Assembly (NCBI GenBank): GCA_014534155.1 | Contig: JACVSB010000141.1 | Span: forward strand, 1-5,178 | Direction: 5' to 3' | Length of the DNA: 5,178 nt | From: Thermoleophilia bacterium | GTDB lineage: Bacteria > Actinomycetota > Thermoleophilia > Gaiellales > Gaiellaceae | Shown: piece after piece, positions 1 to 5,178 of the stretch | Position numbering within the stretch: the stretch's first letter is position 1 | Layout: every line of letters begins with the position of its first letter | Translations under genes and position numbers: made by a program | Notes under the pieces: model-generated | What the model saw: only the letters and a program-made list of their open reading frames with translations | Databases searched by the model: none | Told to the model about the DNA's origin: nothing

Positions 1-112
1 CTGCTCGACGAGCACGCGGCGGGTGAACGGCGACCGCGCGCTCACCGGCTACTGCTACCGGGGCAGGCGCGTCTTCTGCGTCATGTACTACGACACGGGG
101 CTTCCGTGCTGA
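1..112 (+). CDS. C-terminal end of a small cysteine-rich, probably exported protein (partial)
   Basis: The 5' end lies outside the window. The frame begins at base 2 and ends at TGA 110-112, giving 36 residues. They contain four cysteines, at visible residues 1, 18, 26 and 36 (the last residue), and several tyrosines (GYCYRG, FCVMYYDTGLPC). This pattern is typical of a secreted disulfide-bonded protein, but I recognise no family. The frame after the stop turns into low-complexity Ser/Arg/Pro sequence, so the stop looks real. The end overlaps the GTG at 106 of the next gene (GTGCTGA), which suggests translational coupling in one operon. A cysteine-rich exported protein beside a thiol-disulfide membrane protein makes functional sense, as a possible substrate or partner, but that link is inference. 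The alternative is a chance open frame, which I consider less likely given the composition. Confidence 0.55.
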   Translation, partial: CSTSTRRVNGDRALTGYCYRGRRVFCVMYYDTGLPC

Positions 113-1491
113 TCGAGGTCGTCGTCGCCTCGACGGGGCTCATCGCCGGCGTCTCGGGCGCCTGGTCACCCTGAGGGCTGTCCATGATCGAGACGATCTC
201 CCCCGCCGTGTGCGGGGGCCGGAAGAGGTACCGCAGCGCGCTCGCCGCCTTCGCCCTCGCCGCGCTTGCCGCGGCGGCCGCGAGCGGGGCCGCGCTCGGG
301 CTCGTCGGATCGCTCCTCGCTCGCACCGAGGCGTGCCTCGCCGCGGCGCTTCTCGCCGCGCTCGCGGCGCTTCGCGAGCTCGGCGTCTCTCGGATCCGGT
401 TTCCGGAGCCGCGCCGCCAGGTCCCCGAGCGTTGGCACGCGACGCTGCCCCTTCCCGCCTGGACGACGCTCTACGGCGGGGCGTTGGGCCTCGGCTTCCT
501 CACGTACCAGCCTGTCTCGACGTTCTGGGTTGCGGGGGCGGCCGCCCTCGCGCTCGGACGGCCGGGGGCCGGCGCTGCGTGCTTTGCGCTGTACGGAGCG
601 GGCCGGGCCGCGATGATCATCGTGCCCGCGAGCCGCTCGCCGTGCCCGACCGCCGCCGTCGATCGCCTCGCTCCCATGCGCGCCCGCGTGGTGCGCGGGA
701 ACGCCGTGGCGCTCGCCGGCGCCGCGGTGGCGCTCGCCCTCGCTCCGGCCGCGGCGGGCGAGCCGATCGAGCTCGGCGCCGGAAGCCAGCTCGATCCCTC
801 GTTCTCGCGCGGCGCCCTTGCCTATACCCAGTGGGAGGACGGCGTCGCGCGGGTCGTCGTCCGTTCTGGCGGGCTCGAGCAGGCATCGTTCTCCGGCCGG
901 TCTCCGTCGCTCGACGGGCAGCTCCTTGCGTACGCCGACGAGGTGGCGGTCCGGGTCGTGCGCTGGAGCGACGGCGCCGAGCTCGTCCGCATCCCCGGCG
1001 GCAGGCAGCCGGCGCTCTCCTGGCCGCGGGTCGTCTACCGGGTCGACCTGCGGGACGGCGTCACGGAGCTTCGCCTCCGCGACCTCGTCTCGGGTGCCGT
1101 GGACCGCCTCGCTCGCGTCGGGGCCGAGCGCGACGTCGGCCGTCCGGCTGCGAGCGGGACGCGGATCGCCTGGACGGTCACCGGCTCCCGCTTCTCTCGC
1201 GTCGTCCTCTTCGACGCGCTCACGGGGGCGAGGGTGTTCGCGGCAAGGACGAGGATCGGAAACCTGCTCGCACCGGCCCTGAGCGGCGAGCGGGTCGCGT
1301 GGGTGGACCAGCGCCAGCGAACCTCGTACCTTCGCGTGCGGGTGCTCGGCGCGCCACGCGTCGCCACGATTGCCCGCACGCGCAGGAGAGCGGAGGCCTT
1401 CTGGACGACCGCGCTGGCGGGACGCACGGCGTACGTGACCCGCTGGCGACTCCTCGCGCGCGAGACCCACCTGGAACGGGTTCGCTTCTAG
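106..1491 (+). CDS. CcdA/DsbD-like thiol-disulfide membrane protein fused to a beta-propeller-like domain; in-frame TGA, candidate selenoprotein
   Basis: A conventional start is ATG 184 (435 residues), but the same frame runs upstream through one TGA (172-174) to GTG 106, giving 461 residues with the TGA as residue 23. The added segment is a hydrophobic helix ending AWSP-TGA-GLSM. It matches the first helix of the CcdA/DsbD family, whose redox cysteine sits in 'SPC'. Full-length numbering: hydrophobic helices near 3-25, 45-67, 73-91, 118-136, 138-152 and 155-173 form a six-helix module. A further helix at 196-217 looks like an internal signal anchor (ends APAAAGEP). Residues 230-461 carry six P-x-L-S-G-x-x-V-A-Y/W repeats, a TolB/WD40-like propeller probably outside the membrane. 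CcdA-type proteins pass electrons across the membrane to exported thiol proteins. Remaining cysteines are 36, 77, 159 and 180; no second family-type helix-4 cysteine is obvious. GGGG at 97-100 could serve GTG 106, and GAGG at 173-176 could serve ATG 184. Starting at 184 loses the catalytic helix. Alternatives are TGC mutated or misread as TGA. The family is likely; selenocysteine is inferred. Confidence 0.7.
172..174 (+). other. In-frame TGA at the redox cysteine position: candidate selenocysteine codon
   Basis: The codon series around the TGA reads Gly-Ala-Trp-Ser-Pro-TGA-Gly-Leu-Ser-Met. The frame is open and protein-like on both sides, and the TGA replaces the cysteine of the CcdA-family SPC motif. 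One base change (C to A) separates TGC from TGA. Selenocysteine commonly replaces catalytic cysteine in redox proteins, so the position is what a selenoprotein would show. No selenocysteine machinery (selA, selB, selC, selD) is in the window. A sequencing error or true nonsense mutation remains possible. Confidence 0.55.
186..198 (+). promoter_or_regulatory. Hairpin after the TGA, candidate SECIS element (proximal)
   Basis: GATCG (186-190) pairs with CGATC (194-198) around an AGA loop, a 5-bp perfect stem. Sixteen bases separate the TGA from the loop, and the loop's second base is G. As I recall the bacterial SECIS model, it needs about 16-37 bases from UGA to the loop, a short loop with a G in its first two positions and a stem of at least four base pairs. 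This hairpin just meets it. The stem is short, so it could be chance. Confidence 0.3.
200..218 (+). promoter_or_regulatory. Strong GC hairpin after the TGA, candidate SECIS element (distal)
   Basis: CCCCCGC (200-206) pairs perfectly with GCGGGGG (212-218) around the loop CGTGT (207-211). The loop starts 32 bases after the TGA and has G as its second base, inside the range I recall for bacterial SECIS elements. It does not overlap the 186-198 hairpin, so both can form. In sequence this rich in GC, a 7-bp stem can occur by chance. Confidence 0.35.
793..1443 (+). repeat. Six tandem beta-propeller-type repeats within the membrane protein
   Basis: The C-terminal half of the protein repeats a pattern close to P-x-L-S-G-x-x-V-A-Y/W six times: FSRGALAY, SLDGQLLAY, ALSWPRVVY, AASGTRIAW, ALSGERVAW and ALAGRTAYV. 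They are spaced about 35, 35, 45, 43 and 45 residues apart. Each is followed by strand-forming stretches such as VRVVRWSDGAEL and RVVLFDALTGARV. This is the layout of a WD40-like or TolB-like propeller with about six blades. The repeats are at protein level and have diverged in DNA. Confidence 0.65.
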
Positions 1492-1543
1492 CGTCGCCCA
1501 GCGGCCGAGCCGACGCGGATTCGCGCCGAGCGCCCAGGGATGG

Positions 1544-1572
1544 TTGCGGCGCGGGGCGCGATGTTCTACCTT
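1544..1572 (+). promoter_or_regulatory. Sigma-70-type promoter for the coiled-coil gene, leaderless
   Basis: TTGCGG (1544-1549) and TACCTT (1567-1572) are separated by exactly 17 bases, a good match to a housekeeping -35/-10 pair. The ATG at 1579 follows after six bases, so transcription should begin on or next to the start codon. This makes ATG 1579 the likely start and argues against the in-frame upstream ATGs at 1540 and 1561. Confidence 0.6.
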
Positions 1573-1578
1573 CGCGCG

Positions 1579-2130
1579 ATGCAGGACGAGGGTGCGCTCG
1601 AGGCCGCCGGCGACCGCGACTACGGCCGCCTCGGCGAGCGGATTGCGGGAATTCTGAAGGCCGCCGAGGATGCGGCGGCCGGGATCAGCGGCGACGCCGC
1701 GCGGGAGGCGGCCGAGCTGCGGCGGAGAGCGCAGGCGGAGGCCGAGGCGCTCGTCTTCGAACGCCGACGGGAGGCGGAGGCTGACGCCGAGCGGCTGCTG
1801 AGCCAGGCGGCCTCCGACGCGGCCGCGATCCGCGACGCTGTCTACGCGGCCGCCGAGCGGATCGGCGACGAGGGGCACCGGACGCTCGAGCAGCTCCGCC
1901 TGGAAGCGCGCGCGCTCGAGGAGCGCTTCGAGGCGGCCGTCGACGGCCTGAGAGAGCTCGTCGCGCAGCTCGAGGACGTCGTACTCGCAGCCGCGCGACA
2001 GGCGCCCTCGCCGTCTTCCGACGCCGATGGGCGCGGCGAAGTGGACGAGCGCGGGCCGTCCACGCCGGCCGAGCCGCGCCTCGAGCAAGACCTCACCGCG
2101 CGCGCGGCCCGCGACAGCTCGTTTCCGTAG
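1579..2130 (+). CDS. Alanine/glutamate-rich coiled-coil protein of unknown function
   Basis: The start at ATG 1579 gives 183 residues and is chosen because a -35/-10 promoter ends six bases before it. Starting at 1540 would add 13 residues and place the promoter inside the gene. Residues about 12-138 are almost wholly Ala, Glu, Arg and Leu in heptad-like order (AELRRRAQAEAEAL, EQLRLEARALEERFEAA), predicting a long helical coiled coil. Residues about 141-183 are Pro/Ser/Asp-rich and look disordered. There is no signal peptide, membrane segment or cysteine. It resembles DivIVA/Wag31-like or ATP-synthase-b-like coiled coils only in composition; the N-terminal DivIVA membrane-binding motif is not visible. 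It has its own promoter and sits 35 bases before the methionine/folate gene. That a protein is made is fairly likely; its function is unknown. Confidence 0.65.
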   Translation: MQDEGALEAAGDRDYGRLGERIAGILKAAEDAAAGISGDAAREAAELRRRAQAEAEALVFERRREAEADAERLLSQAASDAAAIRDAVYAAAERIGDEGHRTLEQLRLEARALEERFEAAVDGLRELVAQLEDVVLAAARQAPSPSSDADGRGEVDERGPSTPAEPRLEQDLTARAARDSSFP

Positions 2131-2165: not shown

Positions 2166-3989
2166 GTGAGCCGGTTCGCCGAGCGGCTCCGCTCGGGTCC
2201 AGTCATCGTCGCCGACGGCGGCACCGGCGCGCTCCTCTCCGCGCGCGTGCCGCGTCTGCGAGCGCCGGAGGAGGCGAACATCGCGGCTCCGGAGGCCGTC
2301 ATCGCCGTGCACGCCGCGTTCATCCGGGCCGGCGCCGAGCTGATCGAGACGAACACGTTCGGGGCGAACCGACGGAAGCTTTCGGCGCTCCTCCTGGACG
2401 ATCGCCTCGAGGAGATCGTCGAGCGCGGCGTCAAGCTCGCGCGGGAAGCGCGGGAGATCACCGGCCAGCAAGTCTTCGTGGGCGGCGCGATCGGCCCGCT
2501 GGGGGACGCCGAGGGCGGACGGGACGCGGGCGACGAGTACGACGTCCTGCTCGAGCAGGCGCGCCTCTTGGAGGGCCGGGGCGTCGACCTCTTCATGGTC
2601 GAGACGTTCTTTGCGCTGGACGAGCTCCTGCTCGCGATCGACGCCGTGCGAGCCGTTTCGTCGCTGCCCGTCGTCGCGCAGCTCACCTTCGACGAGGACG
2701 CCGAGACCCTGGGGGGCGTCACGGCTGCGGAGGCCGCCGCGCGCCTGCGCGAGGCGGGGGTCGCCGCCGTGGGAGCCAACTGCGGCCTCGGGCCGCAGGC
2801 GGCGCTCGCCGCCCTCTCCGAGATGGCGCCGGCTTCCGACGGGACGCCCCTCTCCGCCCAGCCGAACGTGGGGCTCCCGTCGCGCTCGGGCGGTCGGCTC
2901 ATCTACCCGAACGCGACCCCGGACTACTTCGCCGAGTTCGCCGCCCAGGCGAGCAGCCTGGGAGCGCGGATCCTCGGCGGCTGCTGCGGGACGGCGCCTC
3001 CGCAGATCGCAGCGATCCGCGCGGCAGTCGAGGAAGCGCGGGAGCCGCGGCACCCGCTCGTCGTCGTCGAGCGAGAGCTCGCCGAGGCGGCCGTGAGCCA
3101 CGAAGCCCCCCGGTCGACGGAGCTCCAGCGCAAGCTCGAGGCGGGTGAGTGGGTCGTGTCGGTCGAGCTCGACCCGCCCAAGGGAACGAACATCGGGAGC
3201 ATGCTCGAGGTCGCCGCGGCGCTGAAAGAGTCGGGGCTCGTCTCCGCCGTCGACCTGAACGACAACCCGATGGCACGGGCGCGGCTCTCGGCCCTGGTCG
3301 CGGCAGCGGCGATCGAACGGCGCGTCGGGATCGAGACCATCCCGCACGTGACGCCGCGCGACGCGTCGGTAATGGGACTCCAGTCGCAGCTTCTCGGGGC
3401 GTACGCCGAGGGCATCCGCAACGTCCTCGCGGTGACCGGCGATCCGCCGCACGTCGGCGACTATCCCGGGTCGAACGGCGTGTACGAGATCGACTCCATC
3501 GGGCTCACGCAGCTCCTCGCCCACCTGAACCGCGGCGAGGACTACTCCGGGAAGGCGATCGACGCGCCGACCTCCTTCTACGTCGGCGTCGCTGTCAACC
3601 CGTCCGCGGACGACCTCGATCGCGAGCTCGAGCGCTTCCGCTTCAAGGTCGAGGCCGGCGCCAGGTTCGCGATGACCCAGGCGCTCTTCGACATCGGCTA
3701 CCTCGACCGCTTCCTCGAGCGGATCGGTGGTGCCTCGCCGATTCCGCTCCTCGTCGGCGTCTGGCCTGTGCGCAGCTTCCAGCTGGCCTTCCGGCTCCAC
3801 AACGAAGTCCCCGGCATCGTGATCCCCGCAGCCGTTCAGGAGCGCCTTGCCGGCGCGGGGCCGGACGCCGCTCGCGTCGGCCTCGAGCTGGCCCGTGAGC
3901 TCGCGGAGGCCGCGCGCGAGCGCGCAGCGGGGATCTACGTGATCCCCCCGTTCAAGGAGCCGCACGCGGCCCTCGACGTCCTCCAGTAG
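2166..3989 (+). CDS. Bifunctional homocysteine S-methyltransferase / 5,10-methylenetetrahydrofolate reductase (YitJ type)
   Basis: This 607-residue cytoplasmic enzyme has two domains. Residues about 9-292 are a homocysteine S-methyltransferase barrel: VADGGTGA near 15-22, ETNTFGANR at 61-69, then GANCG (Cys206) and GGCCG (Cys273, Cys274), the three zinc-binding cysteines that activate homocysteine. A charged linker follows. Residues about 328-595 are the FAD-dependent reductase MetF fold: VELDPPKG at 333-340 carries the conserved glutamate, VTGDPP at 423-428 the flavin/folate-site aspartate, and FAMTQALFD at 501-509 is a family hallmark. The reductase makes 5-methyltetrahydrofolate; the other domain methylates homocysteine to methionine. 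The order and length match Bacillus YitJ. The cobalamin and folate-binding domains of MetH are absent, so the methyl donor used by the first domain is uncertain. The start GTG 2166 is set by the TAGACT box six bases before it. It ends with TAG, 68 bases before pdxS. The assignment is firm; the pairing of activities in vivo is inferred from the family. Confidence 0.93.
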
Positions 3990-4045
3990 TCCGAGGCGTC
4001 CGCCGGGGGAGCGGGGGAGAGGAGCCGCGCGTGCTGCGTCGTGGA

Positions 4046-4051
4046 TACACT
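4046..4051 (+). promoter_or_regulatory. -10 box (TACACT) for pdxS, fixing a GTG start
   Basis: TACACT fits TANNNT and is followed by exactly six bases and GTG 4058. It lies inside the longer open frame that begins at GTG 4031, so that upstream start would sit ahead of the transcript. The 4058 start also makes PdxS residue numbering agree with the family. No clear -35 box is visible. Confidence 0.6.
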
Positions 4052-4057
4052 TCTGCC

Positions 4058-4942
4058 GTGGCCGAGCTCGGGACGATGCGCGTGAAGTCCGGCCTTGCCG
4101 AGATGCTGAAGGGCGGGGTGATCATGGACGTGACGACGGCCGAGCAGGCGCGGATCGCCGAGGACGCAGGCGCCGTGGCCGTCATGGCTCTCGAGCGCGT
4201 CCCCGCTGACATCCGCGCCGAGGGAGGCGTGGCGCGTATGGCGGACCCGGAGAAGATCAGCGAGATCCAGGAGGCCGTGACGATCCCCGTCATGGCGAAG
4301 GCGCGGATCGGCCACTTCGTCGAGGCGCAGGTTCTCGAGGCGCTGGAGGTCGACTACATCGACGAGAGCGAGGTCCTGACGCCGGCGGACGAGCAGAACC
4401 ACATCGACAAGTGGAAGTTCCGCGTGCCCTTCGTATGCGGCTGCCGGGATCTCGGCGAGGCGCTGCGCCGGATCTCGGAAGGCGCGGCCATGATCCGGAC
4501 GAAGGGGGAGGCGGGAACCGGCGACATCGTGAACGCCGTGCGGCACATGCGGGCGGTCTTCGGCGGGATCCGCCGCCTCGGGTGTCTCTCGGGGGACGAG
4601 CTCTACACGGAGGCGAAGACGCTTGCGGCGCCCCTCGAGCTCGTCCGCTGGGTCACCGAGAACGGACGTCTTCCGGTCGTCACGTTCACCGCGGGCGGAA
4701 TCGCGACGCCTGCCGATGCGGCGCTCTGCATGCAGCTGGGCGCGGACGGCGTCTTCGTGGGCTCCGGGATCTTCAAGAGCGCCGACCCGGGCGTGCGGGC
4801 GCGGGCGATCGTCGAGGCGACGACGCACTTCTCGGACCCCGCCGTCGTCGCCCGCGTGTCGGGGGGGCTCGGCGAGCCCATGCGCGGCCTCTCGGCCGCC
4901 GCCCTCGCGCCGGAAGAGCTTCTCGAAACGGGCGGCTGGTAG
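4058..4942 (+). CDS. pdxS: Pyridoxal 5'-phosphate synthase, synthase subunit PdxS
   Basis: PdxS condenses ribose 5-phosphate, glyceraldehyde 3-phosphate and ammonia into pyridoxal 5'-phosphate, the active form of vitamin B6; PdxT supplies the ammonia from glutamine. The 294 residues fit the usual length of about 290-300. With the GTG at 4058 as residue 1, the key residues fall at Asp24 (VIMD), Lys81 ([10 protein letters not shown]) and Lys149 (RTKGEAGTG), the same numbers as in the Bacillus subtilis enzyme. Other family marks are [10 protein letters not shown] at 44-53, [14 protein letters not shown] at 99-112 and the phosphate-binding [12 protein letters not shown] and [11 protein letters not shown] near 210-241. 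The frame could extend to GTG 4031, but a TACACT -10 box lies in that extension. pdxT does not follow; the next gene is convergent. Barrel and catalytic residues look intact, so the enzyme should be active if PdxT is encoded elsewhere. Confidence 0.97.
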
Positions 4943-5010: not shown

Positions 5011-5178
5011 TTAGGCGCCGCCGCCTTTTGCGGCTTCCACGAGGTCGGGTTCTGGGGTGACGACTTCTTTGGTGCCGAAGCTTTGCTTGGCTTCGTACAC
5101 GGTTACGGGGCCCACGGTGGGGTCGCCGTTTTCGTTGATCTCGAACTCGGGGGCGATGATCCCGTCCTGGGTGGAGTA
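5011..5178 (-). CDS. C-terminal end of a branched-chain-amino-acid-type ABC transporter substrate-binding protein (partial)
   Basis: Read on the - strand from the window edge, the frame gives 55 residues ending at TAA (5011-5013). It includes the segment APEFEINENGDPTVGPVTVY. An 'xFDENGDPxxGPVTxY'-like strand pair near the C-terminus is typical of the LivJ/LivK-type periplasmic binding family (Peripla_BP_6), exported lipoproteins that deliver amino acids or related small molecules to an ABC importer. The ligand cannot be told from this end. The tail is Lys/Gly/Ala-rich. Its codons differ from its neighbours: 11 of 55 end in A (five GAA, two AAA, one CAA), whereas the + strand genes use GAG and AAG almost throughout. 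This could reflect high expression or a different origin. The gene converges on pdxS, and the N-terminus and rest of the operon are outside the window. Confidence 0.7.
   Translation of the reverse strand, partial: YSTQDGIIAPEFEINENGDPTVGPVTVYEAKQSFGTKEVVTPEPDLVEAAKGGGA

What the first reader, a model, noticed from the sequence alone, without database searches (positions are those of the whole stretch)
106..218. In-frame TGA exactly at the CcdA-family redox cysteine: a candidate selenoprotein hidden by a truncated start
Seen: one frame, open from 106 to 1491 except for TGA 172-174, encodes a hydrophobic helix before the TGA and the rest of a membrane protein after it. The junction reads AWSP-TGA-GLSM. 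Known: CcdA/DsbD proteins carry a redox-active cysteine in an SPC motif at the end of helix 1, and selenocysteine (UGA) replaces catalytic cysteine in many redox proteins. Inferred: the TGA is decoded as selenocysteine and gene callers would wrongly begin at ATG 184. A random nonsense change would have to hit this one codon among about 460.
Basis: partly seen in the sequence, partly recalled or inferred. Interest (0 to 1): 0.88.

Follow-up and report, generated by a model that had tools for sequence, protein, structure and literature searches.

The report
Unrecognised selenoprotein family in actinobacterial membranes
A stop-like TGA codon inside this gene is very probably read as the rare amino acid selenocysteine, as it is in many related genes whose beginnings have been mis-annotated, so a family of selenium-containing membrane proteins seems to have been overlooked.

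Summary
The in-frame TGA (172-174) is real, and the selenocysteine reading holds up beyond this contig. I read the aligned codon in every match of two genome draws that spans it: TGA in 87, TGC/TGT in 24 family members and in 9 weak, CcdA-like matches, and nothing else. A hairpin after the TGA fits the published bacterial SECIS model in 77 of 86 TGA copies tested, against 2 of 20 Cys copies. In 25 TGA sequences it pairs in 92% of cells, with 32 double changes (0 of 500 shuffles); 20 Cys copies pair at chance. In the phylum draw, selA is in 51 of 54 TGA genomes against 183 of 342 others. UGA still ends 18 of 28 of these same genes. All 120 listed database proteins begin at Met27, after the TGA. 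No NCBIfam model and no entry of a 2026 list of 119 families fits. The protein is a distant CcdA/DsbD-like membrane domain with one invariant Sec/Cys, fused to a TolB-like propeller, directly behind a Tat-type Cys-rich protein gene. Its redox role is inferred. The window's own genome is not held.

The parts
2..112 (+). 3' end of the upstream gene: Cys-rich protein with a Tat-type signal (RRxFL) in its full-length relatives; ends ...RRVFCVMYYDTGLPC, stop TGA 110-112
   Evidence: a profile of full-length relatives finds the gene directly upstream in 19 of 19 long TGA loci and 12 of 13 long Cys loci; no Pfam or PDB relative found
106..108 (+). GTG, inferred start codon, overlapping the upstream stop
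   Evidence: inferred, since the frame is open to base 1
106..1491 (+). Selenoprotein gene, 461 residues with Sec at residue 23; about residues 1-215 membrane domain, about 215-461 beta-propeller
172..174 (+). TGA read as selenocysteine (residue 23, motif AWSP-U-GLSM)
184..186 (+). ATG (Met27) where gene callers start the protein; preceded by GAGGG, part of TGA-GGG, which looks like a ribosome-binding site
   Evidence: Met27 is also conserved in Cys copies (18 of 20) and is missing in 3 of 30 TGA copies
200..218 (+). SECIS-type hairpin CCCCCGC-CGUGU-GCGGGGG, apical loop 207-211, 32 nt after the TGA
   Evidence: -14.1 kcal/mol; covariation in relatives; this sequence alone is only marginal against synonymous shuffles (p 0.066)

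Best explanation
The gene encodes a polytopic membrane selenoprotein. Translation starts at about GTG 106, coupled to the end of the upstream gene. The UGA at 172-174 is decoded as selenocysteine by SelB and tRNA-Sec(UCA), directed by the hairpin at 200-218 (strongly supported by comparison; no selenium was measured). Sec23 lies at the end of transmembrane helix 1, at the position of the first redox cysteine of CcdA/DsbD; it is the only invariant redox residue of the family. Inferred function: a one-Sec transmembrane thiol/selenol relay that, with the neighbouring MauE-type membrane protein and thioredoxin domain, sets the disulfides of the Tat-exported Cys-rich protein encoded just upstream; the TolB-like propeller would be its extracytoplasmic docking domain. 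About 0.95 for Sec decoding of the family, 0.9 for this gene, about 0.4 for the functional part.
For: TGA or Cys at the aligned codon with no third codon: 87 TGA and 33 Cys copies besides the window. bSECIS criteria met by 77 of 86 TGA copies against 2 of 20 Cys. Covariation in 25 TGA sequences: 92% of cells paired, 32 cells with changes on both sides, score 0.508 against 0.198, 0 of 500 shuffles; in 20 Cys sequences 37% paired, shuffles 37%. selA in 51 of 54 TGA genomes against 183 of 342 others, p about 5e-10; in the class draw 24 of 30 against 125 of 269. selA, selB, MauE-thioredoxin, Cys-rich gene and this gene in one run in G135 and G158. tRNA-Sec with anticodon TCA in 19 of 19 tRNA loci checked. 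Independent Sec-type formate dehydrogenase TGA sites in 14 of 14 loci examined, including G210 and G061. UGA is the normal stop of 18 of 28 of the TGA genes. Third-position divergence exceeds first and second before the TGA as after it. CcdA profile comparison: probability 92.9, Cys on Cys; nine weak matches of the family model are CcdA-like proteins with Cys at this place. Propeller.
Against: No genome is held for the window, so its own sel genes are untested. Six of 30 class-draw TGA genomes lack selA over the cut-off, and four of those (G142, G129, G180, G265) showed no other Sec sign. selB over its cut-off was found in only 28 of 50 genomes, and tRNA-Sec at 58 bits or more in 18 of the 30 TGA genomes. 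Nine of 86 TGA copies fail the hairpin criteria. Only 11 of 31 pass p 0.05 against synonymous shuffles one by one, and the fold of 160-240 is not unusual. Rfam gave nothing. Two of the five shuffle measures were not significant (139 and 54 of 500). The function rests on gene order and distant homology.
Confidence: 0.9

Rival explanations
1. The UGA is read through as cysteine or another amino acid by a suppressor-type tRNA, not as selenocysteine.
For: Cys occupies the position in the other relatives; four class-draw TGA genomes showed no Sec sign. I did not scan genomes for Cys or Trp tRNAs with anticodon UCA.
Against: SECIS-type hairpin with compensatory changes only in the TGA copies; selA in 51 of 54 TGA genomes of the phylum draw; 19 of 19 tRNA-Sec loci carry TCA; UGA is the terminator of 18 of 28 of the same genes.
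Confidence: 0.05
2. Translation starts at ATG 184; the upstream helix is a separate short ORF or a leader, and the TGA is an ordinary stop.
For: All 120 listed database proteins begin exactly at Met27; TGA-GGG gives a ribosome-binding-like GAGGG before the ATG; Met27 is conserved.
Against: Cys copies read through without a stop and keep the same upstream helix and SPC motif. Three of 30 TGA copies have no Met at that place. Codons before the TGA evolve like coding codons. The protein would lose its first helix and its one redox residue.
Confidence: 0.04
3. Sequencing or assembly error, or a recent nonsense mutation in a dying gene.
For: Most sequences are metagenomic; the window is one 5178-base contig.
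Against: The same TGA in 87 other gene copies, also on multi-megabase contigs such as those of G507, G348, G379 and G409; the rest of the frame is open and conserved.
Confidence: 0.01

Closest known systems
CcdA / DsbD transmembrane domain (PF02683, PF13386)
   Same: Hydrophobic helical domain with an SPC-type motif at the end of helix 1; profile comparison with 11 CcdA proteins aligns 203 columns and puts Sec23 on the first CcdA cysteine; 9 of 39 family members match PF13386, best E 2e-5.
   Different: The window protein itself matches neither Pfam model. Only one redox residue is invariant; the second CcdA cysteine has no counterpart. Sec instead of Cys, and a fused propeller.
Known bacterial selenoprotein families (Table 1 of PMC13188914, 119 families/subfamilies)
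   Same: UGA at a redox Cys position, SECIS-type hairpin, sel genes.
   Different: No listed family is a CcdA-like protein with an SPU motif; the nearest by name, TsoB, is a rhodanese/DsbD fusion-like protein with UxxxxU.
MauE/MauD maturation genes of methylamine dehydrogenase (MauE PF07291; the role of MauD/MauE is recalled)
   Same: Near neighbours: MauE-type proteins (PF07291, E 1e-14 to 1e-18), in two tested cases fused to a thioredoxin-like domain, and a Cys-rich Tat-type protein.
   Different: The Sec protein is not MauE, and the Cys-rich protein shows no relation to the dehydrogenase light chain by Pfam, PDB sequence or fold.
TolB-type six-bladed propeller
   Different: Fused to a membrane domain; a common fold that by itself shows no function.

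Membership tests
Bacterial selenoproteins | In-frame UGA at a position where homologs have Cys, with conserved sequence on both sides | tested here: met
Bacterial selenoproteins | SECIS hairpin after the UGA (loop 3-9 nt, stem 4-16 bp, G in the first two loop positions, spacing 16-37 nt, energy at most -7.5; model from PMC13188914) | tested here: met
   Window: loop 5, stem 7, spacing 32, -14.1 kcal/mol; 77 of 86 TGA copies pass; covariation
Bacterial selenoproteins | Sec machinery in the same genome | tested here: inconclusive
   The window's genome is not held. Relatives: selA in 51 of 54 (phylum draw) and 24 of 30 (class draw) TGA genomes
Bacterial selenoproteins | Selenium physically present in the protein | not testable with these tools
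   needs mass spectrometry or 75Se labelling
CcdA/DsbD transmembrane family | Match to the family's Pfam models | tested here: not met
   Window protein: no match at E up to 1 or 10; 9 of 39 relatives match PF13386, best 2e-5
CcdA/DsbD transmembrane family | Two redox cysteines, in helices 1 and 4 (recalled; both invariant in the 11 CcdA sequences) | tested here: not met
   Only residue 23 is an invariant Cys/Sec in 39 members
CcdA/DsbD transmembrane family | Common fold and descent | tested here: inconclusive
   Profile comparison 92.9%; weak matches of the family model are CcdA-like proteins; the membrane domain alone was not folded and searched
NCBIfam named selenoprotein families | Match above a curated cut-off | tested here: not met
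   window protein; 39 members, best DsbD PRK00293 E 0.0016
Methylamine dehydrogenase light chain (for the upstream Cys-rich protein) | Sequence or fold match | tested here: inconclusive
   No match; fold search without a hit, on a model of mean pLDDT 67

The most novel reading that the evidence does not exclude
This is a phylum-wide, previously unlisted superfamily of membrane selenoproteins in Actinomycetota: CcdA-derived one-Sec transmembrane relays. Sec is the common state, and at least three Sec-Cys switches are forced on the tree. With MauE/thioredoxin partners it forms a selenium-dependent pathway that matures a secreted Cys-rich protein, and it helps to keep the Sec machinery in these bacteria.
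Probability: 0.45. Interest if true: 0.87.

Novelty: new variant of a known kind. Interest (0 to 1): 0.82.

Why it matters
In a sample of 396 genomes of the phylum, at least 54 carry a TGA copy, so hundreds of database proteins of this family probably lack their first helix and their active residue. It would add a common selenoprotein family, place Sec inside a transmembrane redox carrier, give a reason for sel genes in many soil actinobacteria, and offer natural Sec/Cys pairs for testing why Sec is kept.

Tried and rejected
Pseudogene or sequencing error: dropped once the TGA recurred in relatives. Global UGA reassignment: dropped, since UGA ends many of the same genes. Upstream protein as a methylamine dehydrogenase light chain (my first thought from its W..CC and DCC motifs): not supported by Pfam, PDB sequence or fold. 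Rfam for SECIS: no match. Viral contigs: no relative. Fold search of the full model lists propellers only, so the membrane domain is barely tested. tRNA-Sec by the Rfam cut-off alone was not discriminating: 14 of 14 control genomes rang at E 0.001 and 5 were over the cut-off, so I used 58 bits, a threshold of my own. One search printed nothing because the motif was too strict; redone. The pattern for the upstream gene was wrong and its counts are discarded; one search replaces them. My for the minus-strand ORF used wrong frames in part; one search has the right one.

Rows dropped before counts: six TGA sequences (G095, G212, G249, G289, G285, G200) were left out of the covariation alignment because their hairpin lies elsewhere or was not found, a choice made after seeing the folds. 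G289 was left out of the tree as truncated. Three of 14 CcdA loci (L213, L219, L224) were left out of the CcdA alignment. G181, G511, G581 and nine weak matches were read last, after the tree, hairpin and selA counts; they are in none of those, but selA is present in G181 and in G511 and G581. G005 (Cys) came from the pattern search, not from a draw. The 55 loci all have Cys, but one search pattern was WSPCGLSM, so they are no unbiased count and are not in the totals (except G001-G005).

Full report
What is there. The frame 106-1491 has one internal stop, TGA 172-174, in AWSP-TGA-GLSM. It is open to base 1, so the start at GTG 106 is inferred from its overlap with the stop of the gene before it. 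Downstream in the window lie a coiled-coil ORF, a bifunctional homocysteine methyltransferase/MTHFR gene and pdxS. No whole genome is held for the window.

Database relatives all miss the residue. A search with the read-through protein gave 225 proteins; 120 are listed, of 412-446 residues. All 120 (the window's own annotated form included) align from query residue 27 on, and none reaches residue 23. That could mean that the protein truly starts there, or that gene callers stop at the same TGA.

DNA of relatives decides between these. In a class-level draw of 299 genomes 72 matched, many of them with exactly one TGA inside. I read the aligned codon in all 50 genomes whose match spans it: 30 TGA, 20 TGC/TGT (49 of them, G181; one search also read G005, Cys, from a pattern-biased search). 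In a phylum-level draw of 396 genomes 81 matched. Of the 30 loci returned, 6 were Cys genes already read and 24 new ones all had TGA. Thirty-four further places had 31 TGA and 3 TGC. The rest that span the codon are G511 (TGA, in two contig pieces), G581 (TGA, a weak match) and nine weak matches that look like CcdA-type proteins with TGC/TGT. Beside the window this makes 87 TGA and 33 Cys copies, and no other codon. Relatives with Cys read through the place with the same helix before it. Three of 30 class-draw TGA copies have no Met at residue 27.

SECIS. The published bacterial model (PMC13188914, section 5) asks for a loop of 3-9 nt, a stem of 4-16 bp, G in the first two loop positions, spacing 16-37 nt and at most -7.5 kcal/mol. 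It is met by 28 of 31 TGA sequences (window included) and by 2 of 20 Cys sequences, by 21 of 24 and 28 of 31: 77 of 86. G511 and G581 were not tested. The window's hairpin is 200-218, CCCCCGC-CGUGU-GCGGGGG. On 25 TGA sequences (six left out, see Tried and rejected) the helix is paired in 92% of cells against 74.6% in shuffles; five of seven pairs have changes on both sides, 32 cells in all against 10.6, and the covariation score is 0.508 against 0.198, with 0 of 500 shuffles as high for those three measures. Two coarser measures were not exceptional (139 and 54 of 500), and sliding the partner destroys the signal. On 20 Cys sequences the same columns pair in 37.1% of cells, the shuffles in 37.1%. 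Against synonymous-codon shuffles the TGA group is shifted (median z -1.29 against +0.06, p 7e-6), but one by one only 11 of 31 reach 0.05 and the window has p 0.066. The fold of window 160-240 as a whole is not unusual, and Rfam found nothing.

Machinery. selA over its cut-off: 34 of 50 genomes; in the class draw 149 of 299, split as 24 of 30 TGA genomes, 125 of 269 others, and 9 of 19 Cys genomes (p 4e-4 and 0.02). In the phylum draw 235 of 396 have a selA match, split as 51 of 54 TGA genomes and 183 of 342 others, p about 5e-10 (the weak match of G483 is counted as absent). selB over its cut-off: 28 of 50. tRNA-Sec at 58 bits or more: 29 of 50, of which 18 of 30 TGA genomes and 10 of 19 Cys genomes. 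ARAGORN gives anticodon TCA at 19 of 19 such loci examined. Fourteen FdhA loci chosen for one internal TGA all have it at a U-H site with hairpins nearby; among them are G210, which lacks selA, and G061. Four TGA genomes (G142, G129, G180, G265) showed no Sec sign. These are draft-sized genomes and the sel genes often sit together on one contig, so absence may be incompleteness; that is inference.

Gene neighbourhood. In G135 and G158 one run holds selA, selB, a MauE-thioredoxin fusion, the Cys-rich gene, the Sec gene and a CAP-domain gene; G135 also has a selD-like gene before selA. A profile of the Cys-rich protein finds it directly upstream in 19 of 19 long TGA loci, 12 of 13 long Cys loci, 2 of 11 short TGA and 2 of 7 short Cys loci (one further Cys hit lies 4.3 kb off and is included in the 12). 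A MauE profile finds a gene in 12 of 19, 5 of 13, 4 of 11 and 0 of 7 (17 loci held under 2.5 kb of upstream sequence). Short forms without the propeller have TGA too, for example G285, where the order is MauE, a Cys-rich protein, a Trx-like protein and the Sec gene.

Evolution. A tree of 74 sequences (54 TGA, 20 Cys) needs five label changes, three forced by well-supported branches, against 17.9 in shuffles: Sec and Cys have switched several times, and the direction is not shown.

Known or new. The window protein and 39 members have no NCBIfam match above a cut-off. Table 1 of the 2026 review PMC13188914 (read: abstract, section 5, section 7 parts 1 and 2 of 3, found passages) lists 119 families; none is this one, CcdA does not occur in the text, and the nearest is TsoB (rhodanese/DsbD fusion-like, UxxxxU). 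Nine other full-text searches and the one that gave this review listed no paper with such a protein; I saw listings only, and subscription papers and preprints are not held. So it is not in the sources I could search; it may be in print elsewhere.

Mechanism. Shown by comparison: TGA/Cys alternation, the hairpin, the link with selA. Inferred: selenium in the protein, topology, and the role as a one-Sec relay serving the Cys-rich partner.

Noticed in passing
window 2166-3989 and 4031-4942: Bifunctional homocysteine S-methyltransferase/methylenetetrahydrofolate reductase (NF006396, 599.6 bits) and pdxS (NF003215, 504 bits), both over their cut-offs.
   Followed up: partly
window 5011-5178, minus strand: C-terminal 55 residues of another gene, ending ...VTVYEAKQSFGTKEVVTPEPDLVEAAKGGGA* and running off the window.
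   Followed up: no
window 1540-2130: Ala/Glu-rich coiled-coil ORF with only weak, sub-threshold DivIVA- or Scy-like matches.
   Followed up: no
L254 (G015), L256 (G338), L257 (G537), L258 (G444), L272 (G581): Divergent paralogs with TGA in other motifs (STG-U-GTSMNDVF, SSG-U-GLSMNRVF, TLP-U-GPNAVYG, DSG-U-GHSLGHVL, ASP-U-SLNGADAL); three of the four tested for a hairpin pass. They may be further Sec families.
   Followed up: partly
L120 and L119 (G135, G158), after the Sec gene; also L120 5193-6158: CAP-domain (PF00188) proteins flank the sel/Sec gene run.
   Followed up: no
L135 and L136 (G126, G011): Short Cys forms lie just after a rhodanese-like ORF (named by eye) instead of the Cys-rich gene.
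   Followed up: no
G153 C61 and C74; G181 C1 and C55: Two selA copies in one genome.
   Followed up: no
L130, L134, L137, L150 (G095, G212, G249, G289): SECIS-type hairpin lies about 11-12 nt closer to the TGA, loop CGUGC or GUG, at a different place in the coding sequence.
   Followed up: partly
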